Notes under the pieces: model-generated
Told to the model about the DNA's origin: nothing
The model's database searches: none
What the model saw: the letters and a program-made list of their open reading frames with translations, nothing else
Source: Thiomonas sp.
Lineage (GTDB): Bacteria; Pseudomonadota; Gammaproteobacteria; Burkholderiales; Burkholderiaceae
Assembly (NCBI GenBank): GCA_027443745.1
Contig: DAIAZB010000395.1
Span: forward strand, 3,989-67,988
Direction: 5' to 3'
Length of the DNA: 64,000 nt
Part shown: positions 7,094-32,806 of the stretch, piece by piece
How positions within the stretch are numbered: the first letter of the stretch is position 1
How the letters are laid out: every line of letters begins with the position of its first letter
Position numbers and translations under genes: made by a program

Positions 7094-7259
7094 GCCTGGC
7101 CTCCGTCGCCTCATCATCGAAATCAGCACCGAGCTGGCGCTCGGCGGCCTTCCGGTCGGCCGCATCGACAGGAGCGAACTGCTCGTTCGGTTCGCCGTCG
7201 ACGCTGTGCTGCGCATCGGGATGCAATTGCATGGCGCGCTCCAGGTTGAGGCCCGCCAC
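7086..7259 (-). CDS. Small acidic hypothetical protein, probably 5'-truncated
   Basis: This frame ends in a TGA that overlaps the ATG of the ArdC-like gene. It encodes an acidic tail (QLGADFDDEATEARHG) and could start at GTG 7259 or ATG 7232; it stays open back to about 7340 without a good start. The codon pattern looks coding and the overlap suggests translational coupling. The upstream part may have been lost when the TetR/FabF-like pair was inserted next to it. I do not recognise the family. Confidence 0.4.
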   Translation of the reverse strand: MAGLNLERAMQLHPDAQHSVDGEPNEQFAPVDAADRKAAERQLGADFDDEATEARHG

Positions 7260-7458
7260 ATCGGGCCAATACCCAGCCTCTGCAAAGCGGGCCCGCTCAC
7301 CCGACCGACCAGTCCGATCAAGACTGGCGCTGAACCTGAGTCAGGTTCGGCGGCCACCTGCCGGCGCTCCCCTTGTCCTCAAGCGGACCCGCAAATGACC
7401 GGCTTCGGCCCCAGACCGTGCCCAGGCAAGACCGCTGCCGTCGGGTGGCGAACACCCG

Positions 7459-14492: not shown

Positions 14493-15207
14493 TGATGGAG
14501 GCTCCAACCTTTGAGAAGATGGAGACATGAACAAGTCGAACAAGTTTTCGCCCGAGGTCCAGCGCGCAGTGCGCATGGTGCAAGAGCACCGAGACGAGTA
14601 CCCGTCGCTGTGGGCGGCGGTGGAGTCGATTGCGCCTAAGATTGGCTGCGTGCCGCAGACGTTGCTCGAATGTGTCAAGCGCGATGAGGTCGATTCCGGA
14701 GCACGCCCGGGCGTGACCACGGCGGAAGCCCAGCAAGTCAAGGATCTGGAGCGCGAGGTGAAGGAGCTTCGCCGGGCCAACGAGATTCTGAAGCTGACCA
14801 GCGCGTTTTTCGCTGAAGGCGAGTTCGACCGCCGATTCAAGTCCTGAAGTCATTCGTTGACGAGCATCGTGATCGGTTCGGGGTCGAGCCGATCTGCAGC
14901 GTGCTGCAGATCGCTCCGTCCGGTTATCGGCGACGCGTTGCCCAGGCACGCAATCCGGCACTGCGCAGCGCTCGCGCCAAGCGTAATGCCGAGTTGGTGC
15001 CGCATGTCGAACAGGTCTGGCAAGCCAACATGCAGGTCTACGGCGCCGACAAGGTCCGGAAGCAGATGAACCGCGAAGGCGTTGTCGTCGCGCGTTGCAC
15101 GGTGGAGCGGCTGATGCGCCGGCTCGGGCCGCGCGGCGTGATGCGCGGCAAGATCCTGCGCACCACGATCAGCGACGCCAAGGCGCCGTGCCCGCTGGAC
15201 CGTGTCA
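14493..15207 (+). mobile_element. IS3-family element, right part missing
   Basis: The left end (TGATGGAGGCTCC at about 14493) is followed by a complete orfA and a truncated orfB. The element stops abruptly at about 15207 within the VNR motif of orfB, where the sequence switches to an IS21 fragment. Its insertion cut the ImmA/IrrE-type gene. Confidence 0.75.
14527..14847 (+). CDS. IS3-family transposase OrfA
   Basis: This 106-residue helix-turn-helix protein begins [18 protein letters not shown] and ends with a leucine-zipper-like coiled coil ([19 protein letters not shown]), as in IS3-family OrfA. OrfB lies in the -1 frame, consistent with the programmed frameshift these elements use to make the full transposase. 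OrfA is intact but cannot mobilise the element because orfB is truncated. Confidence 0.85.
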
Positions 15208-17221: not shown

Positions 17222-17833
17222 CTAATCGCTGACGATCGCGATCACGCCCAGCACGACGAACAGCGTGCCGGCGAGAAACTGGCCGATCCGCAGCGCCTGG
17301 CCGCTCGGTGACACGCGGGAACGCAACGGATGGGCGAGCAGGATGCAGAACACGTCGGCGGCGGAGAACAGCAGGTTGGCGCAAGCGCCGAGCAGGAACA
17401 GTTGCCAGCCAAGCCCGAGCGACGCGTCCGGATCGGTGAATTGCAGCAGAAACGAAAAATAGAACAGCGCGGATTTCGGATTCGACGCCTCGATGAACGC
17501 GCTCGACGACACTACGTTGTTCGGCACGTCGATCGCCGCGTCCTGCCCTATGGGCGCGCGGATGCGCTGGATGCCGAGCCAGATCAGGTAGCCTCCACCG
17601 ACCACCTTGAGCATGTGATATAGCATCGGTGATGTATTCAGCACCGCGACCGCACCGAGCGCGACGATGCAGATCTGAAAAAGGGCGCCGAGGTGGATGC
17701 CGAGCGCGGACAGGAAGCCGACACGCCGCCCGTGCTGAAGCGTCAACGATACGGTCTGTAGCAGCGCGGGCCCCGGAATGAAACCGAAGCCGAGGCAGGT
17801 TAGGCCGAAGAACAACGCTTTTTCTGGCAACAT
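17222..17833 (-). CDS. LysE/RhtB-family amino-acid exporter
   Basis: The 203-residue product is an inner-membrane LysE-type translocator with about six hydrophobic segments. The family signature occurs early: FGFIPGPALLQTVSLTLQHG resembles the GPxxxx(V)xxxxxxxG motif, and ASNPKSALFYFSFLLQF matches the NPK region. The start ATG at 17833 shares its A with the stop codon of the radical SAM gene (TGATG), so the two are translationally coupled. It probably exports the product or a toxic amino acid intermediate of the pathway, which is inference. Confidence 0.85.
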   Translation of the reverse strand: MLPEKALFFGLTCLGFGFIPGPALLQTVSLTLQHGRRVGFLSALGIHLGALFQICIVALGAVAVLNTSPMLYHMLKVVGGGYLIWLGIQRIRAPIGQDAAIDVPNNVVSSSAFIEASNPKSALFYFSFLLQFTDPDASLGLGWQLFLLGACANLLFSAADVFCILLAHPLRSRVSPSGQALRIGQFLAGTLFVVLGVIAIVSD

Positions 17834-19431
17834 CAGAGATCGTCTCCGATCACGATGCCGAGTCGACCACATTCGCCGCGCACCTGATCGCGCGCGGTAG
17901 CGAGCCGCTCCTTAGACAGTTCGGGCATGAACACGCCGATATAGTCGTCAATGGCGGCCTCGCGATCGAAGATATCGACGTTCCGGTAGCGGTTGGCCAC
18001 ATTCTGCCGCAGTGCACGGCTTCCAATCGCTAGACCCAATCGAGCCGACATTGTTTCAGCCTCGTCCGGATCAGTCAGATAGCGAAAATCCTTCGAGCCC
18101 GGTTCCGGCGACAGCAATTCTATGTCGGCGCTGATGATCACATCCCGCCCGGCCTTGAGAAAGGCGATGTAGGTCTCGATGTTTTCCTCCAGCAACGCCT
18201 CGTTCATCCCCAAATGCCCCAGAACGAATCCCGCCTTGATCGCTACGCCATGCGTGCGTGCGTTGTGCAGAGCGCGCAGATTGGCGTCGGCCATCCGATG
18301 CGCTGCCGCCACCGGATCCTTGTTCCGCAGCGGCTTGTTGAGCGCCTGCAGAGAACGCGCGGCGCCTGCGTCGACGCCCACGAACAGAATGCGAAAACCG
18401 ATCTCGCGCATAGCTTTCAGTACTTGCTCCTTCTCCATACCGTCTGCGCGCGCGTAGCCAACTAAGACCGGGCGCTCGTCCACCGGCAACGCGCACCACC
18501 ATCGCGGCGGCGAGTCCGCCATGTCGAACATCAGCCGTGCGAACGTGAGCGGCAGCTCGTCGGCCGTAACGTACAGGTAATCGTAGCCCGCCTCCCATGC
18601 GCCTCGTACGGCGGACCATGCGTGGTCTGCTGGCAGTTCGTTCTTCCACATGTTGCCGTACTGAATCGAGCAGAATGAACAGGCGTCGTCGCCGCTGAAC
18701 TTGATGCAGCCGCGCCCGATTTCGACAGGCACTCCCTTGTGCACCTGCCGCCCAGTCAGCGCCAGGATCCGCCGGGCGAGACGTCGGGTGAAATTCTCGG
18801 TGTAGACGGCGGTATGCGGCAAGGTACGGTCGATCAAACCGTAGTCGATGACGCGGTTCACAGGCTCACGAATCGCCGGATCGGCAACGATCCTCCCGGA
18901 TTCCAGGCGAACCGAACCGGGATAGAAGCTGGCGGCTCGTGACTGCTGCCGATCCCTCAGGAAATCGACCAAGCCGCCATACACTTCGTTGCCGACAAAT
19001 CCGCAATCGATCAGCTCACCGTGGCGATCGAGAATCTCTCGGCTCAATGCCGTGAAATGATCGTTACCGATCACGATCGAGATATGCGGATCGATGGATT
19101 TGACTGCGCGGGCGATCCGGATCGCGGCTTCATAATTGGCCGTGATCGCACTGAGACAAACGGCGAGTGTGCGGCTGGCCCGCTCGCGAATAGCTGCAAG
19201 AATATGTTCGAGCGGATGAATCACGCCATCGACGTAACAGCCTTCGAAGCCCGGAAGCGCATCGACATAAGAAGCCAGTGACAGGATGCCGAGGTGCGGG
19301 AAATTGGCCCAGTCGGTATGTTGAATGCCCTTCGATACGACGATGTCGCTCGCTTCGCCCACGTCGTCAGCATCCAGATCATTGCTGTTCGGCGGATTGA
19401 CGAAGAATACGACTACCCTCGGCTCGCTCAT
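17833..19431 (-). CDS. B12-binding-type radical SAM protein
   Basis: The product has 532 residues. The N-terminal 160 residues have the cobalamin-binding-like fold of this class (VVVFFVNPPNSN, HLGILSLASYVDALP), and the radical SAM core follows. The cluster cysteines are Cys242, Cys251 and Cys254 in RGCIKFSGDDACSFCSIQYG, a CX8CX2C spacing rather than CX3CX2C. Such enzymes methylate or rearrange unactivated carbons; the substrate is unknown. The start at ATG 19431 was chosen because the upstream frame is non-conserved. A lux-box-like dyad at 19533-19552 lies about 100 bp upstream. It is coupled to the LysE gene. Confidence 0.82.
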   Translation of the reverse strand: MSEPRVVVFFVNPPNSNDLDADDVGEASDIVVSKGIQHTDWANFPHLGILSLASYVDALPGFEGCYVDGVIHPLEHILAAIRERASRTLAVCLSAITANYEAAIRIARAVKSIDPHISIVIGNDHFTALSREILDRHGELIDCGFVGNEVYGGLVDFLRDRQQSRAASFYPGSVRLESGRIVADPAIREPVNRVIDYGLIDRTLPHTAVYTENFTRRLARRILALTGRQVHKGVPVEIGRGCIKFSGDDACSFCSIQYGNMWKNELPADHAWSAVRGAWEAGYDYLYVTADELPLTFARLMFDMADSPPRWWCALPVDERPVLVGYARADGMEKEQVLKAMREIGFRILFVGVDAGAARSLQALNKPLRNKDPVAAAHRMADANLRALHNARTHGVAIKAGFVLGHLGMNEALLEENIETYIAFLKAGRDVIISADIELLSPEPGSKDFRYLTDPDEAETMSARLGLAIGSRALRQNVANRYRNVDIFDREAAIDDYIGVFMPELSKERLATARDQVRGECGRLGIVIGDDL

Positions 19432-19532
19432 GGCGCGATTCTCTCGATATTGTGGATATTCGGTCGGCGCACGCCTCAGCTCGCAGTGTCTCCCCCGATG
19501 TCGCAAATGTAAGAGAAAGTCCTTTAGCCGGA

Positions 19533-19552
19533 ACCTGTCAGCCATGACAGGC
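19533..19552 (-). promoter_or_regulatory. Lux-box-like operator upstream of radical SAM gene
   Basis: The 20-bp site ACCTGTCAGCCATGACAGGC has the CTGT-N8-ACAG dyad of lux boxes. It shares 12 of 16 core positions with the site at 31522-31541 before luxI. It lies 101 bp upstream of the radical SAM start, and GC-rich arms (CCGGA/TCCGG) extend the dyad. Binding by the LuxR at 32042 is inference. Confidence 0.65.
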
Positions 19553-19618
19553 TCCGGCAATACGCGTGCTGTTCTGATCGGAATACGGCGTTCCGCTGTA
19601 CCGCCAGTTCGCGGGCCA

Positions 19619-21523
19619 CCCAAGTTCGACGTTTCCTGGCGGCGATTTCGGTCAGAAGTCCAGTCATGGCAAGACTTTAGGTGTGTTTTTTCCTCTTACG
19701 CTGTAGTGACACGTCATTTCTTGGAACATTCGCTTTAGCGATCTTTCCTGCGATATAGTGGCGACATGTTCGTCAAGCTCACCCGCTCCGGATCGCGCAG
19801 CTACGTCAAGCTTGTGGAGGCGTACCGCGATGACCAGGGGGTCTCCCGCCAGCGCATCGTGGCCACGCTTGGCCGCCTGGAGCAGGTGCGCACCGGCGGG
19901 GCCGATGCCCTGATTCGGGGTCTGCACCGCGTCATCGACGGCGAGGAGCCGCAGGCGCCCTCGGTGCGCTTTGCCCCGGCGCTGGCGGTGGGCGACACCT
20001 GGATGCTGCACGCGCTGTGGCACAAGCTGGGCTGGGACGAGGCGTACCGCCGTGTCCTGCGCAATGCCCACGGCGCCTTCGACGCCGAGCGGCTGCTGCG
20101 GGTGATGGTGTTCAACCGCCTGTGCGACGCGACGTCCAAGCTCGGCGTGCTGCGCTGGCTGGAGGGCACGCGCGTGCCGGGGGTCGACAACGCCTCGGTC
20201 ACCCATCAGCGCCTGCTGCGCACCATGGACACCCTGGCCGAGCGCGGTGAGGCGATGCAACGCGCTCTGGCGGCGGTGTTGCGGCCGCTGGTCGATCAGG
20301 ATCTGTCGATCGTGTTCTACGACATGACCACCATCGGCGTCGAGGGGCACAGCGAGATGCCCGGCGAGATCCGCCAATTTGGCATGTCCAAGGACGGCGG
20401 CATCCGCCGGCAGGTCATGCTCGGCGTCGTGCAGACCGCTGAAGGCTTGCCCATCGCGCACCGCGTCTGGGAGGGCAACACGGCCGAGGCCCCGACGCTG
20501 CATGCGGTGGTCGACGAGATCCTGGCCCTGTACCCCGTTAAGCGCATCGTGCTGGTGGCCGACCGCGGCCTGCTCAGCCTGGACAACCTGGAATGGCTGC
20601 AGGCGGTGCGCATCGGCAAGACGGCCCAGCCCCTGGAGTTCATCCTGGCCGTGCCCGGTCGCCGCTACGGAGAGTTCACCGAAATCCTCAGCCCCTTGCA
20701 TGCCGAGCATTGCGCGCCAGCGAAGGACGAGGTCATCGGCGAAACCGCCTGGAAGGGTCTGCGCCTGGTCTGGGCTCACGACCCGCAGGCCGCAGCCCAG
20801 CAAAGCCGGACGCGGCGCGAGACCATCGAGACCGTCACGCGGCAGGCCGAGCAGCGTGCCGGCAAGCTCGACGCCCAGGACGCCGGATCGACCTTCAAGG
20901 GCCGGCGCCTGAGCGACTCGGGCGCCAAGGCGTGGCTGTACCGTGCCGTCAGCGATGCGCACCTGGGCTCGATCGTCAAGGTCGATCTGCAGTCGGATCT
21001 CTTCACCTACGTCATCGACGAGGCCGCTCTGACGCGGGCCGAACTCAACGATGGCAAGCTGCTGCTGGTGACGAACACCGCCGATCTCGATCCCGCCGAG
21101 GTGATCGCGCTACAAGTCGCTGGCCGACATCGAGCGGGGATTCCGGGTGCTCAAGTCCGAGATCGAGATCGCCCCGGTGTTCCATCGCCTGCCTGATCGC
21201 ATTCGGGCTCACGCGTTGATCTGCTTCATGGCGCTGGTGCTGTACCGCGTGCTGCGCATGCAACTCAAGGCCGCCGACAGCCCCTATTCCCCGGAACGAG
21301 CCCTCGAAATCGTTCGCCACATCCAGCTCCACCAGGTGCGCATCGCCGGCCAGGGCGCCGCCAGCGGCCTGACCGACCTGAGCCCCGAGCAGCTCGCCTT
21401 GTTCGGCCAACTTCAACTCGACACCCCCACCAAAGAGCCCTTCGACATCGCCCCGTAGTGCCAATTTCAATCGCCGGAACATCGGCGAATCAATGGCTTG
21501 CGCAAAAATATGTCGAACTCGGG
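19619..21523 (+). mobile_element. IS1634-family insertion sequence, right copy
   Basis: This 1905-bp copy has the same ends as the left one: CCCAAGTTCGAC at 19619-19630 and the inverted CCCGAGTTCGAC at 21512-21523. The flanks are GGGCCA (19613-19618) and GGGCCT (21524-21529), so a 5-bp duplication GGGCC is present. It is inverted relative to the left copy. Its transposase is frameshifted. Confidence 0.88.
19766..21458 (+). pseudogene. IS1634-family transposase, frameshifted
   Basis: The gene matches the intact copy at 15368-17062 almost throughout. At about 21110 the codons for VIARYKSLADIERGFRVLK are disrupted: a GCGCGC run is two bases shorter, so the first frame ends at 21196. The remaining third, starting with LKSEIEIAPVFHRLPDR, continues in another frame to 21458. 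The element could still be moved in trans by the intact copy. Confidence 0.88.
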
Positions 21524-21960
21524 GGGCCTGGGCGACATGGCCCGGCTTCCGGATCGCGTGAGCATCCTGCGCTTTCGGCACCTGTTGGAACAGCACGATC
21601 TGGCGCCGAAGATGCTCGAAGCCGTGAACGCCACGCTGGCGGCCAAGGGGCTGCTGCTCAAGGAAGGCACGGCGATCGATGCCACGCTGATCGCCGCGCC
21701 CAGCTCGACCAAGAACGGCACCGGCACGCGCGACCCGGAGATGCACCAGACCAAGAAGGGCAACCAGTGGCACTTCGGCATGAAGTGCCACATCGGCGTC
21801 GACGCCGACAGCGGCCTGGTGCACACGGTGGTGGGTACCGCGGCCAACGTCAACGACGTGACCCAGGCGCATGCGCTTGTCCATGGCGAGGAAGCCGATG
21901 TGTTCGACGATGCCGGCTACCAGGGCGTCGACAAGCGCGAGGACACGCAGGACCATCGGC
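21524..21960 (+). pseudogene. IS5-family transposase fragment
   Basis: The frame encodes the middle of an IS5-family transposase, including [20 protein letters not shown] and [19 protein letters not shown] and the FDDAGYQGV region. The N-terminus is cut by the IS1634-family copy and the C-terminus is lost after VDKREDTQ at about 21960. The next 220 bp to trpC contain no gene I can support and probably hold the end of this relic and the trpC 3' region. Confidence 0.78.
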
Positions 21961-22183
21961 CGCCACCAGACGCCCCTGATTGCGATCAGCCAGGACCATC
22001 GCGGTACCTTCCCTCCTTCAAGACTGCGCCGCAGAGAGTCTGGGGCTTGGCCTTAATCGGGAGGGCGGAAACGGGGGGATGCTCGTCCGGGATCAATCGC
22101 GCGTAAAAGTTTCGTCCGAAAGCGGCAATCAGAACTCCTGGTGACCACGGATTTAGTGCTCGAAGTCATGCTGCCTGGACGCA

Positions 22184-22975
22184 TCAGCGTGGAACAAGAA
22201 ATTCCCTAGTGATTTTTTCTATGTTGTCAACTTTGAGCAAACTCTCACCGATGAGAAATGCGTGAATGCCAGCATCTGCGAGCCGATGAACGTCGGAAGG
22301 GCCTGAAATCCCACTCTCACTTATCGCAAGCCGACCTGGCTCAAAAAGCGCAAAAAGCCGAATTGAAGTAGTCAGATCGGCCTCGAATGTCCCGAGGTCC
22401 CTGTTGTTGATTCCTATCAACTGGGATTTCATGCCCATCGCCCGAGCAAGCTCTCGCTCATCGTGAATTTCGATCAGGACGTGCAAGCCAAGTTCTATTG
22501 CTGCCGCCTCAAGCTCATGGGCCAGAACCTCATCGACCATTGCAAGGATAATCAGAATGCAATCGGCATGCATCGCACGCGATTCAACAACCTGGTACGG
22601 GTCGATAAGAAAGTCCTTGCGCAGGACAGGCAAATCCACTTCGCCCTTGGCCATCTGGACGAATTCGGGATCGCCTTGGAAGAACGTGCGGTCGGTCAGA
22701 ACCGACAGGCACGCTGCGCCGCCATCGCGGTAGGATTGAGCGATCCGACGGACGTCGAAATCCTTACGCAAAAGGCCCTTCGACGGGCTCGCCTTTTTCA
22801 TCTCTGCAATCAATGCAAGAGACCCTTCGAAATAGTGGTTGGCGATCGCCCTAGTGAAGTTTCGCGGCGGTGTCTGCCCGCGAACAGCGGCGTCGAGCGC
22901 GGCTCGAGGTCTTAGACGTTTGGCCTCGATGATCTCCTCTATCTTCTTCTCCCTGATCTTCTGCAAGATGTTCAT
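22184..22975 (-). CDS. trpC: Indole-3-glycerol phosphate synthase
   Basis: This 263-residue TIM barrel is a full-length IGPS, which closes CdRP to indole-3-glycerol phosphate. Key stretches are present: [13 protein letters not shown] (catalytic lysine), [24 protein letters not shown] and AISESGIS. It is the last gene of the operon; its ATG overlaps the trpD stop by four bases (ATGA). No other trp genes (trpE, trpG, trpF, trpAB) are nearby, so it is unlikely to serve tryptophan supply alone. The base composition is lower in GC than the backbone. Confidence 0.93.
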
Positions 22976-24018
22976 CTTTGTCCCACATCATTGTCGGCAG
23001 TGGGGTATCCATTGGAGACGCGAACGAGCCGCTCGAGACATGCGAGTGCACGGCCCCCGTCAAGCGAACTGCGCGCCGTTGTCATTGCCTCCTCCCAGTC
23101 TTGCGCCATCCCGCTTGCAATCAGCGCCGCAGCTGCGTTGAAAAGTGCTACGTCCCGATAGGCGCCGGGCTTTCCGCCCAGCACCTCTCGCAGAGCGGCC
23201 GCGTTGTGCTCGTTGTCGCTACCTTTAAGGTCTGCCAGTCGGGCTCGCGAAAGCCCCACATCCTCAGGCGAAATCTCGAATCTCCTGATCTCGCCGCCAG
23301 CGAGCATGGCGACCTGCGTAGGACCGGTTAGCGTAATCTCGTCCAAACCATCATCGCCATGTACTACAAGGCAGCGCTCCGACCCGAGGTCACGCAATGC
23401 CTCCGCCATCGGCACAAGCCAGTCGATGGAGTAGACTCCAACCAAGTGGCGAGTGACGCCCGCAGGATTGATAAGCGGTCCCAGCAGATTGAAAATTGTC
23501 GGCATGGCCAGTTCGATCCTTGCTGGCATGACGGCTTTGAGCGCTGGATGATGCGCCGGGGCGAACATGAAGCCCAGTCCGGCTTCCAGAATGCAGCGGG
23601 ACACACCTATTGGCGTTTGGTCGATCGCGACGCCAAGTGCGACGAGGACATCAGCTGCCCCCGACTTCGAGGACACAGCACGATTTCCATGCTTGGCAAC
23701 CCGCACATCTGCGCCAGCCACAATAAAGGCTGCCGTGGTCGAAATGTTGAAGGTTCCGACGCTATCTCCCCCGGTGCCAACAATATCAACCGCCCCTGCA
23801 GGTGCATCAACGCGAACCATCTTCGGGCGCATAGCCTGAACGGCGCCAACAATCTCTTCAACTGTTTCACCGCGCAGTCTAAGACCCATGAGAAGGGCGC
23901 CGATCTGCGGTCCTGTGGCCTCGCCAGAGGTCATATAATCAAAAATTGTACGGGCTTCTTCCCTGCTGAAGCGCTCACCGCTTGCCAAGCGATTGAGAGT
24001 ACGTTTCAAATCGAGCAT
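22972..24018 (-). CDS. trpD: Anthranilate phosphoribosyltransferase
   Basis: The product has 348 residues and joins anthranilate to PRPP. The PRPP loop reads [15 protein letters not shown], followed by [21 protein letters not shown] and the [17 protein letters not shown] motif, all as in true TrpD. The start at ATG 24018 lies one base beyond the stop of the upstream flavoprotein gene, so it is tightly coupled; a longer frame overlaps that gene. Sequence style is like alphaproteobacterial TrpD. It may supply a pathway precursor or act as an insensitive duplicate of the host enzyme. Confidence 0.93.
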
Positions 24019-24019
24019 T

Positions 24020-26173
24020 TCATTGCCCCAATTCGTTCCGTTCGAGCGGATGATTATGGTCGCATCCGCGAAAGACGCCAATATCTTCAGGGAATCTCTG
24101 GTCCCAATCTGGTTGAGTGCTTTCACGCCGAAACGGCGGGCTGTCAGTCAGGCGGTTATCGAGTGTCCGCGCGAAGAGATGTCCTGAATAAACCGCTGCC
24201 GCAATGGTCCCTGGGGCATAGCAGTCACCAATTCTGACCACGCGCGGCCCCATTGCCGCCCGTGCGAGAAGATCAAAGAATAGGTCGTCGCACGGCACTT
24301 GCGATGTTACAAGCACTATCGCGTCAGCCATGATTGTGCGCGGACGCCCAGTAAAAACGCACGCGAGGTCGGCCTCGCCCGCCCTGACCTCTATCAATTG
24401 GGTTGAAACATGTACGGCCGAGCATTTTTCGAGCATGCGTCTCTGGATTCTTGGCTGCTCGGCAGTATTCGTTGTGAACGAAGACACCAAACTGTCTGGC
24501 GTGACGAAGGTCACATCACAGCCGCGCTCCACCAAGTACTCCGCGATCACCCCGCCCATATAGTAGTGATCGTCGTCAAACAGGACAACGCGCCCCTCTG
24601 GAAGTCGCCCAGCTAGGATGTCTTCGGGGGTGAAGATAGCAGTCAACTCAACGCCACGAAGCGGTTGCGTGAGGCTTCGCCCAATCCCATCGCTGCGCCA
24701 CTCTGCGCCAGTTGCAAGTGCAATCAGGGTGAAATCAGCCTCCAGAATGATTCCAGCCGTCACATCATTGTTTGGAAGTAGTGTGACATGTCGGTCTTTC
24801 TTTAGTTGCTCAAGCCGCCAGTCCACCACCCGTTGCCAAGCGCGTAGTCCGGGAAGCCTCGCCTCACGGCGCACGCGCCCTCCAAACTCGGGCGAGCGAT
24901 CAATCAATGTCGTCTCATAGCCACGCCGACCTAGCCATACCGCAGCCTCAAGCCCAGCTGGACCGCCACCCACGATGAGAACCCGGTCGCCTGTATCTTT
25001 CGCAGCGATCCGCTCTGGATGCCAGCCGCGCCGCCATTCTTCTCCAATTGTCGGGTTCTGGGTGCAGCGCAACGGTACGCTCAACTTATCGGACGCAATG
25101 CAAATATTGCAGCCGATGCATTCCCGTATGTCGTCGTAGGCGCCGGTGCGAATCTTTTCTGGCAGGAAGGGATCTGCGATTGACGGTCTCGCCGCGCCAA
25201 TCAGATCAAGTACCCCGGTGGAAATAAGCCAGAGCATCCGATCTGGCGAAGTATAGCGCCCGACACCAACAACGGGTTTGCCAGTTACCTTTTTCACGAA
25301 CCGAATATATTCCTCTTGAAACCCCTCTTCGCTGAAGCGCGATGACTGCCCGTCGTTCTCAAAGGAACTGATGTTGACATCCCATAGATCGGGTAAATGC
25401 GCCAGCATTTGGACGACGTCGCGCCCCTCACCTACGCAACTCAACCCTTCTGACCCGATTAACTCGTCCACGCCAAACCTAAGCGCAATAGCGCAGCGGT
25501 CTCCAACTGCGTCCTTCGCATCCTCGACAAGCTCTCTTAACAGCCGAACGCGATTTTCAAGACTTCCGCCGTAGCAGTCCGTGCGACGGTTATGGCGCCG
25601 CGACAAAAAATGCGCTGGCAAGGTCATATCGTGACCTGCATAGATATAGACAATATCAAAGCCTGCGCGCTTTGCATTTATTGCCGCAAGGCGGTGCCAA
25701 TGCCTGACGTTGCGAATGTCCTGTAGATCCATCTCGCGTGCCATTACCGGTGCATTGCTTCGAGTCGGCGTCAGCGACGGCGCTATAGGAATGGCGCGGG
25801 TCTCAAGGTTATGGACATGAAATCCGTTGTGCGCCAGTTCGATCCCGGCAAGCGCGCCATGCTTATGGATCTCGTCCACGGCACGCGCCAAGATCGGAAG
25901 GTCGTGCTGGTCCCAAAGTCTGAGCTCGCGCGGGTGACATCCTGAGTAATGCACATCACACTGCTCGGTGCAGACAGCCCCCCAACCACCCTCGGCCTTG
26001 ATGCCTCGCATCTGTGCCATTGCGCTGGGATGCACTCTGTTCATTCCGTTACAGTGGGGAACTTGATAGAACCGATTGCGGATCGTAACTGGCCCAATCT
26101 TAAGGGGTGTGAATAGTGGGGCGAACATCGGATCCGCCGCGCTATAGCTTGGTCGCGGAGCGGGATATTTCAT
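24020..26173 (-). CDS. Trimethylamine dehydrogenase-like iron-sulfur flavoprotein
   Basis: This 717-residue protein has an Old Yellow Enzyme-like FMN barrel, a 4Fe-4S site and an NAD(P)/FAD-like Rossmann domain. Cys41 in RFYQVPHC lies where trimethylamine dehydrogenase binds FMN covalently. Cys352, Cys355, Cys358 and Cys370 (CIGCNIC) form the cluster site, and a GGGPAG loop starts at about 402. The family oxidatively removes methyl or amine groups from small amines, passing electrons to ETF. The natural substrate here is unknown. The ATG overlaps the YggS stop by four bases. Confidence 0.88.
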
Positions 26174-26856
26174 ATGGAAAGCGGCTTGCGAGCGCCGAAA
26201 ATCGCACTGCCAACACGAACATGAGTCGCACCATGGGAAATCGCCAGAGCGAAGTCTTGGCTCATACCCATCGACAGGACACTGAGCCCGTTCTGTTGGG
26301 CGATGCTTGCTAGTTTCCGAAAATCATCGACCGGTTCACCTTTGGCTGGAGGAATACACATTAGGCCTACGACATGAAGGCCCAACTGGTCCCGGCATTC
26401 TGAGATCAAGCCGTCGGCTTGCTCAGGTAGGACACCGCTCTTCTGTGGCTCATAGCTTGTGTTCACTTGAATACAGATTGCAGGCGAACGCCCCTGTCTA
26501 TCGCGCTCCTTCGCGATAGCCGCAGCGAGGCTCAAACGATCGACTGACTGAATGACGTCAAAAAGAGCCACGGCGTCCCGCGCCTTCTTCGACTGAAGTG
26601 GTCCGATCATGTGGAGCTTGATCCCAGGATTGGCCTGGAGTAGGGCAGGCCATTTCGACCGAGCTTCCTCCAGTCTGTTCTCGCCGAAGACCCGCTGGCC
26701 AAGATCAATTGCTGATTGCAGCCTATCCGGCTCAACCGTCTTCGAGGCAGCGACCAGCGTCACATCCTCTAGCCGACGTCCACACGCAGCCGCAGTCTCT
26801 TGGATAGCGTTGCGGATACTCGATAGAGCCACTTCCAAATCAACTTTTCTATCCAT
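26170..26856 (-). CDS. YggS-family PLP homeostasis protein
   Basis: The 228-residue protein has the alanine-racemase-like barrel of YggS/PLPBP. The PLP lysine is present in LVAASKTVEP, and the other signatures FGENRLEEARSKW, MIGPLQSKKA and LSMGMSQDF are intact. The GPLQ form resembles alphaproteobacterial members. YggS balances B6 vitamers and amino acids in the cytosol. Together with the PNPOx at 28713 it suggests that this operon needs, or disturbs, PLP metabolism. It lies 34 bp after the B3/B4 gene and overlaps the flavoprotein gene. Confidence 0.93.
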   Translation of the reverse strand: MDRKVDLEVALSSIRNAIQETAAACGRRLEDVTLVAASKTVEPDRLQSAIDLGQRVFGENRLEEARSKWPALLQANPGIKLHMIGPLQSKKARDAVALFDVIQSVDRLSLAAAIAKERDRQGRSPAICIQVNTSYEPQKSGVLPEQADGLISECRDQLGLHVVGLMCIPPAKGEPVDDFRKLASIAQQNGLSVLSMGMSQDFALAISHGATHVRVGSAIFGARKPLSI

Positions 26857-26890
26857 ATTGCTTTTGCTCCACTGCTTGGCTCAAAGACCC

Positions 26891-27565
26891 TCAGTTGGAC
26901 GGCGGGTTTTCCTGAACGTCACATCCAGCTAGTGTGAAAGCCGAAGCCAGTTCCGCTGTCATCGCGCCAAGATCATCGACAGCCTTCTCATGAAGCGCCT
27001 CAGTAACAAGAAGCGCACGTTTTGTCATGCTGGAAACGGCCGACCGCCCGCTTTGCCTATGGACCCAACGCCGCGCATGGGCCCAGCCAGCAGAATCAGC
27101 AAAGATTACTTCGCCCGGCTCGGGATGCTCTTCAGTGCCGGCAAAAGTCACATACCTCTCATCGCCAATGGCGTAGCGGACGGTCAGTGTCCCCACGACC
27201 TGGTCGAGGTCAAAGACAGCGAGAGGAATCGCCCAAGCCGCCGACACCGCGTTGCAGAAATCGACAACAGGGTTTACCGCTGGAAGGTTTCCTTCCGTCC
27301 GCAAGCGCCTCAGAAGCGATTCAGCGGCGCATCGGTATTGCGTAGGCTTCAGACCCATCTGCGAATATGCCCCGCGCCAAGCCCGAATCTGTGGCATCTC
27401 ACTTTCAGACCCGACCGCAAGTCGGCCAAGCGCAGTGCGCAAATGCTGTGCGGCATCGAGCTTTGAGGGATCGAGTCGATCAACGTTAGTGAGCAGGACG
27501 ATACCCACGCTCAATGTCGAAAAATCGGCACGAAGGGCAGTATCGTGCTGAAAAATTGGCGTCAT
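26891..27565 (-). CDS. Stand-alone B3/B4 (PheRS beta-like) domain protein
   Basis: The 224-residue product matches the B3/B4 domain found in the beta subunit of phenylalanyl-tRNA synthetase, where it hydrolyses mischarged tRNA. Typical parts are MPQIRAWRGAYSQMGLKPTQ, NPVVDFCNAVSAAWAIPLAVFD and FADSAGWAHARRW. Free-standing versions are widespread, but their roles are poorly known. The ATG start at 27565 overlaps the exporter stop (ATGA). In this setting it may deal with tRNA mischarged by a non-protein amino acid, which is inference. Confidence 0.85.
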   Translation of the reverse strand: MTPIFQHDTALRADFSTLSVGIVLLTNVDRLDPSKLDAAQHLRTALGRLAVGSESEMPQIRAWRGAYSQMGLKPTQYRCAAESLLRRLRTEGNLPAVNPVVDFCNAVSAAWAIPLAVFDLDQVVGTLTVRYAIGDERYVTFAGTEEHPEPGEVIFADSAGWAHARRWVHRQSGRSAVSSMTKRALLVTEALHEKAVDDLGAMTAELASAFTLAGCDVQENPPSN

Positions 27566-28458
27566 ATAGCTCCACTCCTTCTTCTGACTGGAAGACTTAG
27601 CACAAGAATTGCCGCGATCACAGTGACCATACCCAATAACTGGGACAGTCCTATGGACTCCCCTAGAAACACTGCAGCAAGGGCTACGGCGGTAAGTGGC
27701 GCAATCGCAGTGAACGTTGCAGCTTCGCCCCCGCTGACGCGCGCAGCGCCCGCGTACCAAAGGAGGAAGCCCCCGACGGTCGGGATAAGCGCGTACCAAG
27801 CAATAGCCGCCAAGGCGGATATGGACAGATTGATCCTCTCCCAACCAAATGCAACGAAGGGAAGTGAGAACAGAAGCCCGAACGCAGTCATTACCGTCGA
27901 CTGCAGTAGCGGCGGCAACAGCACATCCATTCGCTTGTTCAGAAGGATGAAGGCACTCTCACAAATCACCGCCCCCAACACAAGGACCATCCCGACCAAC
28001 GAGCCATGTTCACGGCCAGTCCATGCAACGGACATCACGCCTATTGTGGCGAGCGTGACGCTCGCCGCAATCCTATAGTCCGATCGCTCGCGCAACACGA
28101 GCACTGCGAACAACGCAGAAACGGCGGGAAGCGTTCCAATCACAACACCAGCGGTCGCGGCTGGAAGAAAATTTAGTCCTGAAATTAACAAGACCGTATA
28201 CCCTACGCTCCCAGCGGCAGCTTGCAGAGCTAAAAGTCCCCAATCCCGCCGCCTGAGGCTTGGCATTCGCACATGCGACATGACAACAATCGCCAATAAG
28301 ATCGGTAGGGCAAGTGCAAATCGCATGGCGACAGCTGCAAAAGGTGGAATATTACCAGCAATTATCTTCGAGGCAATGACCGTTGAACCAACCGTCATCA
28401 TTGCAAGTGCGAGCAGGAGGTATCCGAAAAGGTGATCGGCCATTTTAAGCTTAGTCAT
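27562..28458 (-). CDS. EamA/DMT-family exporter
   Basis: This 298-residue inner-membrane protein has about ten hydrophobic segments in two EamA repeats (GSTVIASKIIAGNIPPFAAV and later GAVICESAFILLNKRM). The family exports amino acids and metabolites. An AGGAAG site precedes ATG 28458. The 254 bp upstream to the PNPOx gene contain no gene I can support, so a promoter could lie there. It is coupled to the B3/B4 gene. Confidence 0.88.
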   Translation of the reverse strand: MTKLKMADHLFGYLLLALAMMTVGSTVIASKIIAGNIPPFAAVAMRFALALPILLAIVVMSHVRMPSLRRRDWGLLALQAAAGSVGYTVLLISGLNFLPAATAGVVIGTLPAVSALFAVLVLRERSDYRIAASVTLATIGVMSVAWTGREHGSLVGMVLVLGAVICESAFILLNKRMDVLLPPLLQSTVMTAFGLLFSLPFVAFGWERINLSISALAAIAWYALIPTVGGFLLWYAGAARVSGGEAATFTAIAPLTAVALAAVFLGESIGLSQLLGMVTVIAAILVLSLPVRRRSGAI

Positions 28459-28712
28459 CTTAAATTATCTTCCTGTGCCGTTTTCTCGCTGCAAATTTGG
28501 CCTTAACCCGATGCCATCGAAGTTTAACGTCTTTCACGCCGAGACTTATGGTAGCCTCCGGCTTACTCCACGGCGTCTATAACCACCACCACACACCCGC
28601 TTGGTCCATCCCGATCCAAACTGAAGTACGCGATTTTGGCTAATGGACAATCATCGCTCGCGAACAAAATATGCCAGTATAACCTCATCAAGTGAAGTCG
28701 AAATAGAACAAG

Positions 28713-29378
28713 TTATGGATAGTACCTTTGACTACTCCACGGAGCACCCTGTGAATTTCGCGTGAAGACAAGACGGTCATGTAGCCTATAAGGCTTATCC
28801 ATCCAAAATTCCATATAGGTTGGGACGATACGGAAGCCGGTCCAGTGGCGCGGTCGCGGGATGGCGCCAAGCGCATACTTGACGGCCTGAACGGCGACAG
28901 CCTTCCGCAACTCATGCCTGCCCGCAAGCGGACGTGACTGGCGACTAGCCCATGCGCCTATCCTGCTCGCCCGTGGGCGCGAAGCAAAATAGGCGTCGGC
29001 CTCATCCTCCGTCACTAGCATTACTTGCCCGCGGAGCCGCACCTGACGCCGAAGTGACTTCCAATGTAGAACCGCAGCGGCCTGCATGTTCGCCAAGAGC
29101 TCGACTCCTTTTTGGGATTCAGTATTCGTAAAGAACACGAAGCCATTAGAATCAAACCCTTTCAGCAATACCATCCGGACATTCGGTAACCCTACCGTAT
29201 CCGAGGTGGCGATCGCCATGGCATTGGCATCGTTAATTTCCTTGATGTGTGCAAGTGCAAGCCATTCCCCAAAGAGCGCGAACGGATCCTCACCGTTGAC
29301 CACATCTTCGTCGTTCTCGAATGCGACATCTGGGTTGAGTCCCACCAAATCCATTGCTTTCTCCTGGCCTTGGCCCAT
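28713..29378 (-). CDS. Pyridoxamine 5'-phosphate oxidase family protein (PdxH-like)
   Basis: The 221-residue flavoprotein follows PdxH closely: [34 protein letters not shown], the substrate loop ASRQSRPL and a C-terminal [15 protein letters not shown]. PdxH makes PLP from PNP or PMP, while the related PhzG acts in phenazine synthesis; the C-terminal match favours true PdxH. GAGGAGGT precedes ATG 29378, and the gene starts 13 bp after the upstream stop. It may raise PLP supply for this pathway. Confidence 0.88.
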
Positions 29379-29391
29379 ACCGCGTACCTCC

Positions 29392-30678
29392 TCATCCGAC
29401 TGGAATGGGCTGGTGTTCCGGCAGCAAATTCCGCCATTTGTCCAACGGGTGGCCGGGCTTGGTCACAAGGCGCATTGAGCCGTCAATATTCACAACGACT
29501 TCGCCGGCTGGCGGAACGTTCAAAAATTCCATGTGCTGCGTTGCACAATAGGCGCCAACATCAAAGATCAGAAGATAACCACCAGCTACGACAGAATTAG
29601 GGACTACAGCCTCACCCGGCAATATATAATCATTTCTGAGAAGACTTCGACCGCGAATCTTGCATGTTACAGCGTCTTCGCCGTGGAAAATTTCTCGAAA
29701 CGTATCATCTAGAAAAACGGTATTGTGTGATCGGTTGCGTAGCTGCGCCGAAGGCATCAGCATGCGCGATCCGTCGGTGACGACAATGTTGGCGTTGGAA
29801 TGTTTCACGATATCGCGTTTTACGCCAACTAAGAGTACGCCAGTGTCTGCCAGAATGTCCCGACCTGGCTCGATCAAGAAATTAACGTAATCTGGAATTC
29901 CCATCTCGGCCGCAAGCACACGAATGGCTTTGAAGTAGGTAAGCCAGTCAAAATGCTTTATCTGATCATCCCACCCTTCATATTTGAAGCCATGGCCGCC
30001 TGCAAAGTTGATCGATTTCGCAGTTGAAAAATGATCAAGAAACATACGGAAGATCTGGCGTGCTATATCAATCATGTCATCAAGCGAATTGCCGCTACCG
30101 CAGTACACCTCGAAGCATTCAAGTGTACGGTCATGGGCCTTAAGCATTTGTGCAAGGTCGGCTAATTGGTCGACCTTAATGCCGGGCTTGTCAGAGCCGA
30201 GGCTGTCGATCCGAACACTAATTGTCTTAGCCTTTTGCTGCAGAGCAAAGGTGATTTCGTCGAGACTCGCCAAGAAGGTTGGGTATCCATGCTGTCCCCA
30301 AAAACTGATCTCTTCGTTCGATACGTGCCCGGGTGAAACGATGAAGTTTGAATAGCCAAACTTTGTGACGATCTCGTGTTCGTTCGGCATCTGGAGAAGA
30401 ATACCAACACCTTCATCTCGCAGCGGCCTCAGAATGTGCGGGTTGGCGTTGGGGAAAAACGGGACAAAAATAGAAAGTCGATCCCCAAGGCCAGCCTCAA
30501 CTGCGGCAGCTTTCACTCGGCGGGCATTCTTCGTTAACTGCGCCGCGCTATAGATAAATACAGGTGTTCCAGCGTAGTTAACAATCATCTCAAGATTTAC
30601 CGATCCAATCCAATGCGTACCAAGCCGTGAAATGTGAGTTGAGGTCGGATGACTCTCTATATATTCGGTTGATTTCAT
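29392..30678 (-). CDS. PLP-decarboxylase-fold protein lacking the PLP lysine
   Basis: The 428-residue protein has the fold-type III barrel and C-terminal beta domain of LysA/ornithine decarboxylases, with EPGR at 270-273 and a [13 protein letters not shown] motif. The site of the PLP lysine reads [12 protein letters not shown] (residues 70-81) where families have a YxxKAN pattern, so the lysine is gone. The histidine of the HxGS motif is replaced (YCGSGN) and the catalytic cysteine of GPxCExxD is Leu346. It is probably not a normal decarboxylase; a binding or altered role is inference. It is first in the operon. GGGAG precedes ATG 30678. Confidence 0.82.
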
Positions 30679-30881
30679 TTGCTAAACTCCCTGATAGTGT
30701 TAAGCAATATTTAATTTGATGGATAACGAATCGGTTTATTTTTTGCCGGGCGCTGGGCATGTAAAAAACGAGGAGCTTCTTGGCAGTCCAGCAATTTGCA
30801 CGAAGCAGTTTCAATATTTGCAGGCCCATTCTTTAACTGGATGTGAAAACTAATTGTTATTAGTCATCCATTAATTGCAAA

Positions 30882-31460
30882 TCAAAAATTGATCGGCTCT
30901 GCATTTTCTGTCCAAAATACCCAGCAAGCAAAAATCGGATGCCCATCAATAATCATTGGCGGCCCCGCACGGTGCGCATGGAAGCCAGCCCTCCGTAATA
31001 ACCTCTCCACCCCGATATTCGTCACCATAATGAGCCGCTTAGCCCCTTGCTCGGCCGCACAGGAAATGGATGCGCGCATCAATGCGATCGCCGCCTCTGA
31101 GGACATCTTCCCCAGTGCTGACGTAGCTTGGCTGTTGAAATCCGTGGCCGCAAAGCGCGACAACTCCCAGACATCCGGGGAAGCCGGTGGGGCGAGGCCG
31201 TTCAAGAGTTGTGGGAAAACCTCGCCCAGGAGGTAGGGCTTGGTGGTGGGCAGTAGCCGTGCACAGCCGCAGACACGCCCCTGACCATCCTGGCCAACAA
31301 CATAGACGGTATCCGGGCGATCGAACTGGTCCGCCTCAATGCCATCCTGGGAGGGCACATCCCATTCCAGCTTCTCGACAAACACCCGATGGCGATAGCG
31401 CCCGACGCTGTTGTGCAAGCTCTGCGGGAGCTGCGCCGAGGATCCTGTCACGATGTGCAT
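30882..31460 (-). CDS. luxI: LuxI-family acyl-homoserine lactone synthase
   Basis: The 192-residue enzyme couples an acyl-ACP with SAM to make an AHL signal. Conserved residues are visible in RYRHRVFVEKLEWDV, EADQFDRPDTVYVV, GCARLLPTTKPYLL and WELSRFA. The start was placed at ATG 31460 because GGAGGT lies six bases upstream; the longer ATG at 31478 lacks this. A lux-box-like dyad 61 bp upstream suggests positive autoinduction. The acyl chain cannot be deduced. A stretch of about 200 bp separates it from the downstream operon. Confidence 0.93.
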   Translation of the reverse strand: MHIVTGSSAQLPQSLHNSVGRYRHRVFVEKLEWDVPSQDGIEADQFDRPDTVYVVGQDGQGRVCGCARLLPTTKPYLLGEVFPQLLNGLAPPASPDVWELSRFAATDFNSQATSALGKMSSEAAIALMRASISCAAEQGAKRLIMVTNIGVERLLRRAGFHAHRAGPPMIIDGHPIFACWVFWTENAEPINF

Positions 31461-31521
31461 ACCACCTCCAATTGGCATTGAGCCTTGGAGGTGTATTCCA
31501 CCTGCGCCAACTCGGGCGCGT

Positions 31522-31541
31522 AACTGTTAGATCTGACAGGT
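31522..31541 (-). promoter_or_regulatory. Lux-box-like operator upstream of luxI
   Basis: The site AACTGTTAGATCTGACAGGT is a 20-bp lux-box-like dyad with a CTGT-N8-ACAG core. It lies between the RsaM-like stop (31544) and the luxI start at 31460. Control by the adjacent LuxR is inference from position and from the match to known lux boxes. Confidence 0.75.
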
Positions 31542-31543
31542 CA

Positions 31544-31981
31544 TCAGGCGTAACGTGAACGAATATGCTGTTCGACCGTTGCTTGCCAGGACCATGTTGA
31601 AATCAGCACGCCCAGCGCGGCATCGGTCCTGCATCTGCCCAGGTCGCGGTGCTGAGCATCCACGATCATCACATTGCTTCGGGGTTCGCCGATAGGGGTA
31701 TAGATGAGCGGCATCGCAGAGGCATCAAGCCACCAGTCCCACCCCAGGGTGATCACCGGGGATGTTGTGCTCACCCATTCGGTGTAACCGGATACGGGGT
31801 CCAGACTGGCGCCTTCAAAGGTGGGCGGAGATCCGACATGTTCATCCAAGCCGGACAGCAGATGGGCGAAGGGAATCGTCCTTAGGGTTTCAACGGTGAG
31901 ACGGATCAGACCGTCATCTGACAGGGTCATCATTGGCGCTCGGAATAATGCAAGGCCATCACCCGTGGTCGGGTACATCAT
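31544..31981 (-). CDS. RsaM-like (DUF4902) quorum-sensing modulator
   Basis: The 145-residue protein has the size and style of the RsaM family (DUF4902) encoded between luxI and luxR genes in Burkholderia and relatives: RLTVETLRTIPFAHLLSGLDEH, GYTEWVS and ITLGWDWWLD. RsaM dampens AHL production. GAGGA precedes ATG 31981, which is why this start was chosen over the 32029 frame. It sits between luxI and the divergent luxR. Confidence 0.78.
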   Translation of the reverse strand: MMYPTTGDGLALFRAPMMTLSDDGLIRLTVETLRTIPFAHLLSGLDEHVGSPPTFEGASLDPVSGYTEWVSTTSPVITLGWDWWLDASAMPLIYTPIGEPRSNVMIVDAQHRDLGRCRTDAALGVLISTWSWQATVEQHIRSRYA

Positions 31982-32041
31982 GTTTGTAGTCCTCGATGAA
32001 TTGCAGGGGGTCACGTTACATGAAGACACAATGCAGGAGTA

Positions 32042-32806
32042 GTGTCAAATATGACAGTCCGCCACAAGAACTGTCCGCAGGAGAAGGCCGTGAAGGGATG
32101 GCAAGAACACCAACTCCATGCGCTGCAAACGATCACGTGTGACGCGCAGTTGTTCGAGCTCGCCGCCTCGATCGTCCAATCCCTCGGATTCGACCATTGC
32201 TCCTATGGGCTACGTATGCCGCTGCCGGTCTCTCAGCCCAGGGTGGTGTTGCTGACCAATTATCCGCGTGCGTGGGAGGAACGGTACAAGGAGAGGGGAT
32301 ACGTTGCGGTTGACCCCACGGTCCGCCATGGCACGCACTCCCTGCAGCCCGTCGTATGGTCGGACGCGTTCTTCGCCTCGAGTCGCGATCTCTGGGAAGA
32401 AGCCCGCTCGTTCGGCTTGTGTGTTGGCTGGGCGCAATCCAGCCGGGACGTAAACAGCACCATGGGCCTGTTGTCGGTGTCGCGATCGGGGGAGCCGATC
32501 TCCGAGGTCGAACTGCGCGGCAAGGAGATCAAGCTGGCTTGGCTGACGCAGATGGTGCATCTTGGGATGTCGCGCATCCTCACGGCCAAGTTGATGCCTG
32601 AAGCGAAGGTAAAGCTTACCGACCGGGAGATCGAGGTGCTGCGATGGACTGCGGATGGCAAGACGGCGTCGGAGATCGCCGACATCCTCAACATCTCCGA
32701 GCGCACCGCGAATTTTCACATTGCCAACGTGATCACCAAGCTGAATGCACCGAACAAGACCGCTGCGGTCATTCGGGCGGGAATGCTGGGGATGCTGGGC
32801 TCGTAA
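32042..32806 (+). CDS. luxR: LuxR-family AHL receptor/transcription factor
   Basis: The product has 254 residues. The N-terminal autoinducer domain holds the usual conserved parts (LGFDHCSYGLRMPLP, NYPRAWEERYKERGYVAVDP, VVWSDAFF, GWAQSS). The C-terminal DNA-binding domain is the LuxR helix-turn-helix (LTDREIEVLRWTADGKTASE, ISERTANFHIANVITKLN). CAGGAG precedes GTG 32042; ATG 32051 is an alternative. It is divergent from the RsaM-like gene. It should activate luxI and perhaps the radical SAM gene. Confidence 0.93.
   Translation: MSNMTVRHKNCPQEKAVKGWQEHQLHALQTITCDAQLFELAASIVQSLGFDHCSYGLRMPLPVSQPRVVLLTNYPRAWEERYKERGYVAVDPTVRHGTHSLQPVVWSDAFFASSRDLWEEARSFGLCVGWAQSSRDVNSTMGLLSVSRSGEPISEVELRGKEIKLAWLTQMVHLGMSRILTAKLMPEAKVKLTDREIEVLRWTADGKTASEIADILNISERTANFHIANVITKLNAPNKTAAVIRAGMLGMLGS

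What the first reader, a model, noticed from the sequence alone, without database searches (positions are those of the whole stretch)
17222..32806. Quorum-sensing-controlled biosynthetic locus of unknown product
A LuxI/RsaM-like/LuxR set sits beside a compact minus-strand operon (PLP-fold protein, PNPOx, EamA exporter, B3/B4 protein, YggS, TMADH-like flavoprotein, TrpD, TrpC). A radical SAM/LysE pair in the same orientation has its own lux-box-like site. I recognise each family but not this combination as any pathway I know. Two exporters and a tRNA-editing-like domain suggest an unusual amine or amino acid as product. Seen: gene order, overlaps and motifs; inferred: shared pathway.
Basis: partly seen in the sequence, partly recalled or inferred. 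Interest (0 to 1): 0.88.

Follow-up and report, generated by a model that had tools for sequence, protein, structure and literature searches.

The report
Mobile indole-type small-molecule gene cluster
A compact block of genes on what looks like a conjugative DNA element, sitting next to a cell-to-cell signalling switch, appears to build and export an unknown indole-like small molecule; the same seven-gene core recurs in distantly related bacteria, so it is very probably one real pathway whose product is still unknown.

Summary
The main observation holds. LuxI, RsaM-like and LuxR genes adjoin a minus-strand operon at 22184-30678. Seven of its genes (DAPDC-like, PNPOx, B3/4, YggS, histamine-dehydrogenase-like flavoprotein, TrpD, TrpC) are linked in 16 of 31 loci found with the DAPDC-like protein, in Actinobacteria and Proteobacteria.

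Corrections:
- The radical SAM/LysE pair is a bystander: transposase genes lie between, and the block shared with the two nearest relatives stops at 22006.
- LuxI/RsaM linkage is seen only in those two relatives and the window.
- Ralstonia encodes close homologues; this is probably the HrpG-controlled operon RSp0678-85, labelled "indole/auxin" with no operon mutant in the section read.

Best explanation: a horizontally moving specialised-metabolite operon. TrpD, a host or cluster TrpF, and TrpC build an indole or indole-like skeleton; the flavoprotein and a B6-related trio modify it or supply a precursor; B3/4 protects translation; an exporter secretes the product. Key support: all 12 named Streptomyces clusters carry a TrpF, the only one in each genome. 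Product unknown.

The parts
22184..22975 (-). TrpC-like indole-3-glycerol-phosphate synthase; catalytic motifs intact
   Evidence: PF00218 279 bits; motifs intact in alignments
22972..24018 (-). TrpD-like anthranilate phosphoribosyltransferase; start taken at the ATG giving 348 aa
   Evidence: TIGR01245 387 bits against a cut-off of 199 for the longer ORF; L003 has a 348-aa ATG ORF; PRPP and anthranilate motifs present
24020..26173 (-). Histamine-dehydrogenase-like flavoprotein with 4Fe-4S cysteines
   Evidence: best solved relative 3k30 histamine dehydrogenase; site residues
26170..26856 (-). YggS-family PLP-binding protein; PLP lysine motif (ASKT) kept (role recalled)
   Evidence: TIGR00044 166 bits against 106
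26891..27565 (-). Standalone B3/4 editing-domain protein (probable aminoacyl-tRNA deacylase)
   Evidence: PF03483; solved relatives 9mkl and 9f7e CtdA
27562..28458 (-). EamA-family exporter; a LysE-family exporter stands in the other 14 complete clusters
   Evidence: PF00892; presence table
28713..29378 (-). Pyridoxamine/pyridoxine 5'-phosphate oxidase (PdxH-like); RLHDR motif kept
   Evidence: TIGR00558 237 bits against 180
29392..30678 (-). Diaminopimelate-decarboxylase-fold protein without the PLP lysine and without the aligned catalytic cysteine
30882..31478 (-). LuxI-family acyl-homoserine-lactone synthase
   Evidence: PF00765 101.6 bits
31524..31539 (+). Lux-box-like dyad upstream of luxI, kept in L003 and L004
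31544..32029 (-). RsaM-like protein (DUF4902)
   Evidence: PF16245 99 bits; the name RsaM is recalled
32042..32057 (+). Lux-box-like dyad between rsaM and luxR; identical in window, L003 and L004
32042..32806 (+). LuxR-family regulator; the listed GTG start overlaps the dyad, so the true start is probably downstream
   Evidence: PF03472 and PF00196

Best explanation
A compact, horizontally moving specialised-metabolite operon. TrpD attaches phosphoribose to anthranilate or an anthranilate-like amine, a TrpF (host copy in the Proteobacteria, cluster copy in most Streptomyces) isomerises it, and TrpC closes an indole or indole-like ring. The lysine-less decarboxylase-fold protein, the PNP/PMP oxidase and YggS form a B6-related trio, and the histamine-dehydrogenase-like flavoprotein oxidises an amine; together they make the side chain or a precursor. 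B3/4 clears tRNA mischarged with the product or an intermediate. EamA (LysE elsewhere) exports it. In this lineage LuxI/LuxR/RsaM probably set the timing by transcription running on from the luxI promoter. Shown: gene content, conserved linkage, motif states, PRAI co-occurrence, conserved dyads. Inferred: substrate, order of steps, B3/4 protection, quorum control, product class.
For: Seven-gene core complete in 16 of 31 loci, and in one further genome of the Streptomyces draw (G578). Flavoprotein co-occurs: 17 of 23 genomes searched. TrpD-TrpF-TrpC as one route: each of 17 genomes searched has exactly one PRAI. In all 12 Streptomyces it lies in the cluster, while 41 of 199 genomes drawn from the genus have any PRAI. 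In the four Proteobacteria it lies beside trpB. Cluster TrpD and PdxH are extra copies: two or three TrpD matches in each of those 17 genomes; a second PdxH above cut-off in 16 of 17. TrpC motifs intact. B3/4 resembles CtdA, which protects against a toxic amino acid and was noticed beside canavanine-use genes (PMC10018355, abstract and passages). Mobility: 22006-32799 matches L003 and L004 at 93.6 and 95.0% with no match in the flanks fetched; the window carries TraG, ArdC and a relaxase; distribution is patchy.
Against: No trpE, trpA or trpB lies at the cluster: every trpE and trpA match in 18 genomes and every strong trpB match in 17 lies on another contig or tens of kilobases or more away, so the route to a finished amino acid is not explained. 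G578 has the full cluster without a PRAI beside it, and Kineosporia's PRAI is on another contig. No lux-box-like site directly before the biosynthetic genes, and a chance-level promoter-like site at 30765-30738 could start them independently. Substrate and product are untested. The cluster TrpDs fall on one side of one branch with only 65/39 support.
Confidence: 0.55

Rival explanations
1. Auxin / tryptophan supply operon. Extra TrpD and TrpC raise tryptophan, the decarboxylase-fold protein turns it into tryptamine, and the flavoprotein oxidises that to indole-3-acetaldehyde on the way to indole-3-acetic acid.
For: In R. solanacearum RSp0678-85 was called an indole/auxin operon, and Salkowski-measured auxin rose about 3-fold on hrpG overexpression (PMC1557829, section 8 and passages). 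trpC2/trpD2 (RSp0680/0681) were treated as redundant tryptophan enzymes (PMC5788922, passages). The flavoprotein belongs to an amine-oxidising family whose best solved relative is histamine dehydrogenase. The window's own TrpD keeps the anthranilate-site His.
Against: No operon mutant is reported in the section and passages read; the assay is colorimetric. The would-be decarboxylase lacks the PLP lysine and the aligned cysteine. B3/4, PNPOx, YggS and an amino-acid-type exporter have no evident role in auxin synthesis. Pfam showed no classical auxin enzyme family among the operon proteins.
Confidence: 0.2
2. Scavenging or detoxification of a foreign amine or toxic amino acid, with B3/4 as protection and the exporter as a pump.
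For: CtdA, the nearest characterised B3/4 relative found, serves organisms that meet and use canavanine; the flavoprotein family oxidises amines.
Against: TrpD, TrpF and TrpC are constructive, PRPP-consuming enzymes, and the PRAI inside 12 of 12 named Streptomyces clusters points to synthesis.
Confidence: 0.08
3. One quorum-regulated pathway that includes the radical SAM/LysE pair.
For: Same strand; a perfect dyad at 19535-19550.
Against: Transposase genes lie between. With the correctly framed radical SAM protein, only L002 of 85 loci held gives a hit (78% identity); the window's LysE gives 72% there and under 30% in two other loci, L005 and L020. L002 is a Paraburkholderia sabiae plasmid stretch whose listed features show no core gene, none was found by tblastn, and the dyad is absent.
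Confidence: 0.04

Closest known systems
Ralstonia solanacearum HrpG-controlled operon RSp0678-85 (trpC2 RSp0680, trpD2 RSp0681)
   Same: Close homologues of the DAPDC-like protein (72% identity) and the flavoprotein (73-74%) occur in Ralstonia; trpD2 and trpC2 are reported as horizontally acquired. The eight-gene order in Roseibium (LysE, B3/4, YggS, HDH, TrpD, TrpC, DAPDC-like, PNPOx) would put TrpD and TrpC at 0681 and 0680 if it runs 0685 to 0678.
   Different: Regulated by HrpG; no linked LuxI/LuxR is known to me. That it is the same operon is inferred: no Ralstonia DNA was fetched.
Histamine dehydrogenase (PDB 3k30, 6de6)
   Same: Best solved relatives; same Gln and Asp at the positions of TMADH Tyr60 and Trp355; 4Fe-4S cysteines kept.
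   Different: The position of TMADH Trp264 is Phe in 14 and Met in 3 of 17 cluster proteins, so the substrate probably differs.
Diaminopimelate decarboxylase / BtrK, fold type III
   Different: PLP lysine replaced by Phe and the cysteine of the GPICE(S/T)GD motif replaced by Leu/Ile in the cluster family.
CtdA canavanyl-tRNA deacylase (PDB 9f7e)
   Same: Standalone B3/4 protein, E 1.7e-19.
   Different: Here part of a biosynthetic-looking operon; no riboswitch reached Rfam's threshold in the window, whereas CtdA often has a guanidine riboswitch.

Membership tests
Diaminopimelate decarboxylase (LysA) | Fold type III barrel plus beta domain | tested here: met
Diaminopimelate decarboxylase (LysA) | Schiff-base lysine for PLP | tested here: not met
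   Phe75 aligns with the lysine of 4xg1 and BtrK; Phe in all 24 rows of A1 and in the 30 of 31 loci that cover the position. One of the two search patterns contains this Phe, but seven of the loci lack that pattern and still have Phe, not Lys
Diaminopimelate decarboxylase (LysA) | Catalytic cysteine of the GPICE(S/T)GD motif (role recalled) | tested here: not met
   Leu/Ile at the aligned position in the cluster family; several candidate-phylum and archaeal homologues have a Cys two residues earlier
Diaminopimelate decarboxylase (LysA) | Curated score cut-off TIGR01048 | tested here: not met
   79.6 bits against 297.9
Histamine dehydrogenase | Sequence relationship and 4Fe-4S cysteines | tested here: met
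   717 bits to 3k30; all four cysteines in 16 of 17 rows, one replaced by Ser in L020
Histamine dehydrogenase | Gln/Asp/Trp amine pocket (roles recalled) | tested here: inconclusive
   Gln and Asp in 17 of 17; the Trp264 position is Phe/Met
Histamine dehydrogenase | Oxidation of histamine | not testable with these tools
   needs an enzyme assay
Anthranilate phosphoribosyltransferase (TrpD) | TIGR01245 cut-off and PRPP motif | tested here: met
   387 against 199 bits; GTGGD kept
Anthranilate phosphoribosyltransferase (TrpD) | Anthranilate-site His of KHGNR (role recalled) | tested here: inconclusive
   kept in the window; Gln or Met in 8 of 18 cluster TrpDs, all Streptomyces; His in 23 of 23 non-cluster TrpD-type sequences compared, including one from each of those 8 genomes
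Indole-3-glycerol-phosphate synthase (TrpC) | Catalytic Lys/Glu/Asn motifs (roles recalled) | tested here: met
PdxH | TIGR00558 cut-off and RLHDR motif (role recalled) | tested here: met
   237 against 180 bits; RLHDR in the window
Standalone B3/4 tRNA deacylase | B3/4 domain outside PheRS | tested here: met
   PF03483 87.8 bits against 29.3
Standalone B3/4 tRNA deacylase | Deacylation of a mischarged tRNA | not testable with these tools
   needs an assay
LuxI/LuxR quorum-sensing locus | Synthase, receptor and lux-box sites | tested here: met
LuxI/LuxR quorum-sensing locus | Control of the adjoining operon | not tested
   no lux-box-like site in the luxI-DAPDC gap; expression not measurable here

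The most novel reading that the evidence does not exclude
The lysine-less and cysteine-less decarboxylase-fold protein uses free PLP as a dissociable co-substrate, not a bound cofactor: decarboxylation-dependent transamination would release PMP and an aldehyde, PNPOx would re-oxidise PMP to PLP, and YggS would carry PLP. This trio would make a non-anthranilate aromatic amine acid, which TrpD-TrpF-TrpC turn into an indole analogue and finally a toxic tryptophan-like amino acid that B3/4 edits off tRNA and EamA/LysE exports. Hints: PDB 9cpz, a C387S decarboxylase variant holding PMP and an aldehyde (title only); the same trio in one unrelated locus with purine-type and GHMP-fold genes (L032); the changed anthranilate-site residue in 8 of 18 cluster TrpDs against 0 of 23 others; no trpE at the clusters.
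Probability: 0.15. Interest if true: 0.87.

Novelty: new variant of a known kind. Interest (0 to 1): 0.62.

Why it matters
It gives an odd set of enzymes a testable identity as one pathway. It questions the auxin label on what is probably the same operon in a major plant pathogen. It exposes a widespread family of decarboxylase-fold proteins without the PLP lysine (bacteria, candidate phyla, archaea). It also shows clusters carrying their own TrpF in a genus where 158 of 199 sampled genomes have none. If a free-PLP cycle is real, it would be a new mode of B6 chemistry.

Tried and rejected
Radical SAM/LysE as part of the system: rejected. My first radical SAM query was cut out of frame, so those two calls say nothing on that gene; one search repeats the test with the right frame. 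3-hydroxy-oxindole (hdf) genes of Ralstonia as the homologue: followed and dropped. hdfA is RSp0693, a dioxygenase, outside RSp0678-85, and RSp0678-85 is reported as HrpG- not HrpB-dependent; the primary hdf paper is not held. Cluster TrpD as a clearly separate clade: not supported (65/39). Known RNAs: only an ALIL pseudoknot and a tRNA at gathering thresholds in the window. Promoter- and terminator-like sites in 28300-32200: one of each, below the shuffled means; the promoter-like one lies in the luxI-DAPDC gap. Homologues of the DAPDC-like protein in phages: none; in plasmids: four records, all under 60% identity. Print: searches (0 papers; 0; 8 listed, listings only; 106 papers with at least 3 of 4 terms, 10 listed, listings only) showed me no paper on this gene combination; most subscription papers are not in the library.

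Dropped rows and limits: one search confirmed 33 of 100 pattern-matched stretches (31 loci), so the sample may be incomplete, and one pattern favours the Phe motif; no locus title names Ralstonia. One search used 23 of the 31 genomes; the eight left out are candidate-phylum, archaeal or unnamed-bacterium loci. The hits, and four of the five, are genomes already known. L007 TrpD and PNPOx are split into two pieces each, and only the longer TrpD piece was used. L031 does not cover the lysine position; fragment or spurious rows L027:10875 and L032:13077 were ignored. L085 is a distant TrpD-type protein (31%).


Full report
Observation. Pfam and NCBIfam scans confirm each family at its coordinates. 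On the minus strand the order is rsaM, luxI, DAPDC-like, PNPOx, EamA, B3/4, YggS, flavoprotein, TrpD, TrpC, with luxR divergent. TrpD is best started at the ATG at 24018 (348 aa), B3/4 at 27565 and the radical SAM gene at 19431; the longer ORFs use alternative starts.

Boundaries. Against the two nearest relatives, MAG stretches L003 and L004, only 22006-32799 aligns, at 93.6 and 95.0% identity over 10.8 kb. Biosynthetic proteins are 92-99% identical, LuxI and LuxR 87-91%, RsaM 71-73%. West of the block lie transposase genes and then the radical SAM/LysE pair. Among 85 loci held, only the Paraburkholderia sabiae plasmid stretch L002 has that radical SAM protein (78%), and it shows no core gene. 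TraG, ArdC and a relaxase elsewhere in the window suggest a conjugative element.

Distribution. The DAPDC-like protein gave 31 loci. All seven core genes are in the fetched stretch of 16: L003, L004, twelve Streptomyces, Kineosporia and Roseibium. Aureimonas ureilytica has TrpC, DAPDC-like and PNPOx at a contig edge, and its flavoprotein and TrpD side by side on another contig. The other 14 loci hold the DAPDC-like gene in other settings. The flavoprotein at E 1e-100 is present in 17 of 23 genomes searched. The DAPDC-like gene is rare within groups: 2 of 399 (order of G002), 5 of 392 (genus of G008), 1 of 87 (family of G020); all but one of these hits were already known. Homologues of both DAPDC-like protein and flavoprotein are named from Ralstonia, Chromobacterium, Paraburkholderia and Aureimonas.

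Ring-building enzymes. TrpC keeps its catalytic motifs and TrpD its PRPP motif. Each of the 17 genomes has two or three TrpD matches, so the cluster copy is extra. PRAI (TrpF) is the telling case: exactly one per genome in 17 of 17; inside the cluster in all 12 Streptomyces, beside trpB in the four Proteobacteria, on another contig in Kineosporia. Of 199 genomes drawn from the genus, 41 have a PRAI at all, G008 and G578 among them. G578, a thirteenth of that genus, has the full cluster plus LysE with no PRAI in the 19 kb fetched, but two elsewhere in its genome. The recalled reason is that Streptomyces normally use PriA. This fits TrpD, TrpF and TrpC acting in one route. No trpE, trpA or strong trpB match lies at the cluster (18, 18 and 17 genomes). 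In 8 of 18 cluster TrpDs the anthranilate-site His is Gln or Met, against 0 of 23 non-cluster TrpD-type sequences, one from each of those 8 genomes included; the window's own TrpD keeps His.

Flavoprotein. Solved relatives rank histamine dehydrogenase above trimethylamine dehydrogenase. Gln and Asp stand at TMADH Tyr60 and Trp355 in 17 of 17, as in histamine dehydrogenase, but the Trp264 position is Phe in 14 and Met in 3, so the substrate is probably neither.

Protection and export. B3/4 is related to CtdA. EamA is seen only in the window, L003 and L004; a LysE-type exporter is present in the other 14 complete loci.

Regulation. Dyads before luxI and between rsaM and luxR are kept in L003 and L004. 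None lies in the luxI-DAPDC gap; that gap has no terminator-like site but one chance-level promoter-like site. Read-through from luxI is therefore a likely, unproven, link, and an independent promoter is not excluded. The other 14 full loci have no LuxI or RsaM hit; one partial LuxR-type hit each appears in L020 and L074.

Literature. PMC1557829 (section 8 and passages read) reports RSp0678-85 as HrpG-dependent and putatively indole-related, with a 3-fold rise of Salkowski-measured auxin on hrpG overexpression. PMC5788922 (passages read) reports trpC2 RSp0680 and trpD2 RSp0681 as probably horizontally acquired. The Roseibium order would fit the RSp numbering, which is inference.

Conclusion. 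The operon is very probably a real, conserved, mobile pathway with an unknown, probably indole-type, exported product. The quorum-sensing genes look like a lineage-specific addition. The radical SAM pair is a bystander.

Noticed in passing
17222-19550: Radical SAM (B12-binding)/LysE pair with a perfect 16-base dyad at 19535-19550; a homologous pair (78% and 72%) lies on a Paraburkholderia sabiae plasmid (L002).
   Followed up: partly
L001, L019, L021, L023, L027, L032: Lysine-less DAPDC-like gene near SAICAR synthetase, AICARFT/IMPCHase, GHMP-fold and PRAI-like genes (set varies by locus); perhaps a nucleoside-type cluster, one on a Mesorhizobium plasmid.
   Followed up: partly
L024, L025, L026, L028, L033 (and L029, L030, L031 without the aminotransferase): In candidate phyla and archaea the same DAPDC-like family sits with a class IV aminotransferase and/or a methyltransferase (one member of each family scanned with Pfam).
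   Followed up: partly
3022-7357 and 42264-44273: TraG-type coupling protein, ArdC-type antirestriction protein and a MobA/VirD2-like relaxase: the window looks like a conjugative plasmid or element.
   Followed up: no
28459-28712: The 254-base non-coding gap between PNPOx and EamA shows 96% mean column identity across window, L003 and L004 (alignment includes short gene ends), against 83% for the luxI-DAPDC gap.
   Followed up: no
14802-14918: ALIL pseudoknot (Rfam RF01497), typical of IS3-type transposase frameshifting (typical role recalled).
   Followed up: no
8124-9398: A beta-ketoacyl synthase gene on the same element.
   Followed up: no
L013: Amycolatopsis anabasis: DAPDC-like gene near an asparagine-synthase-like gene and an IGPS, a third setting for the family.
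   Followed up: no
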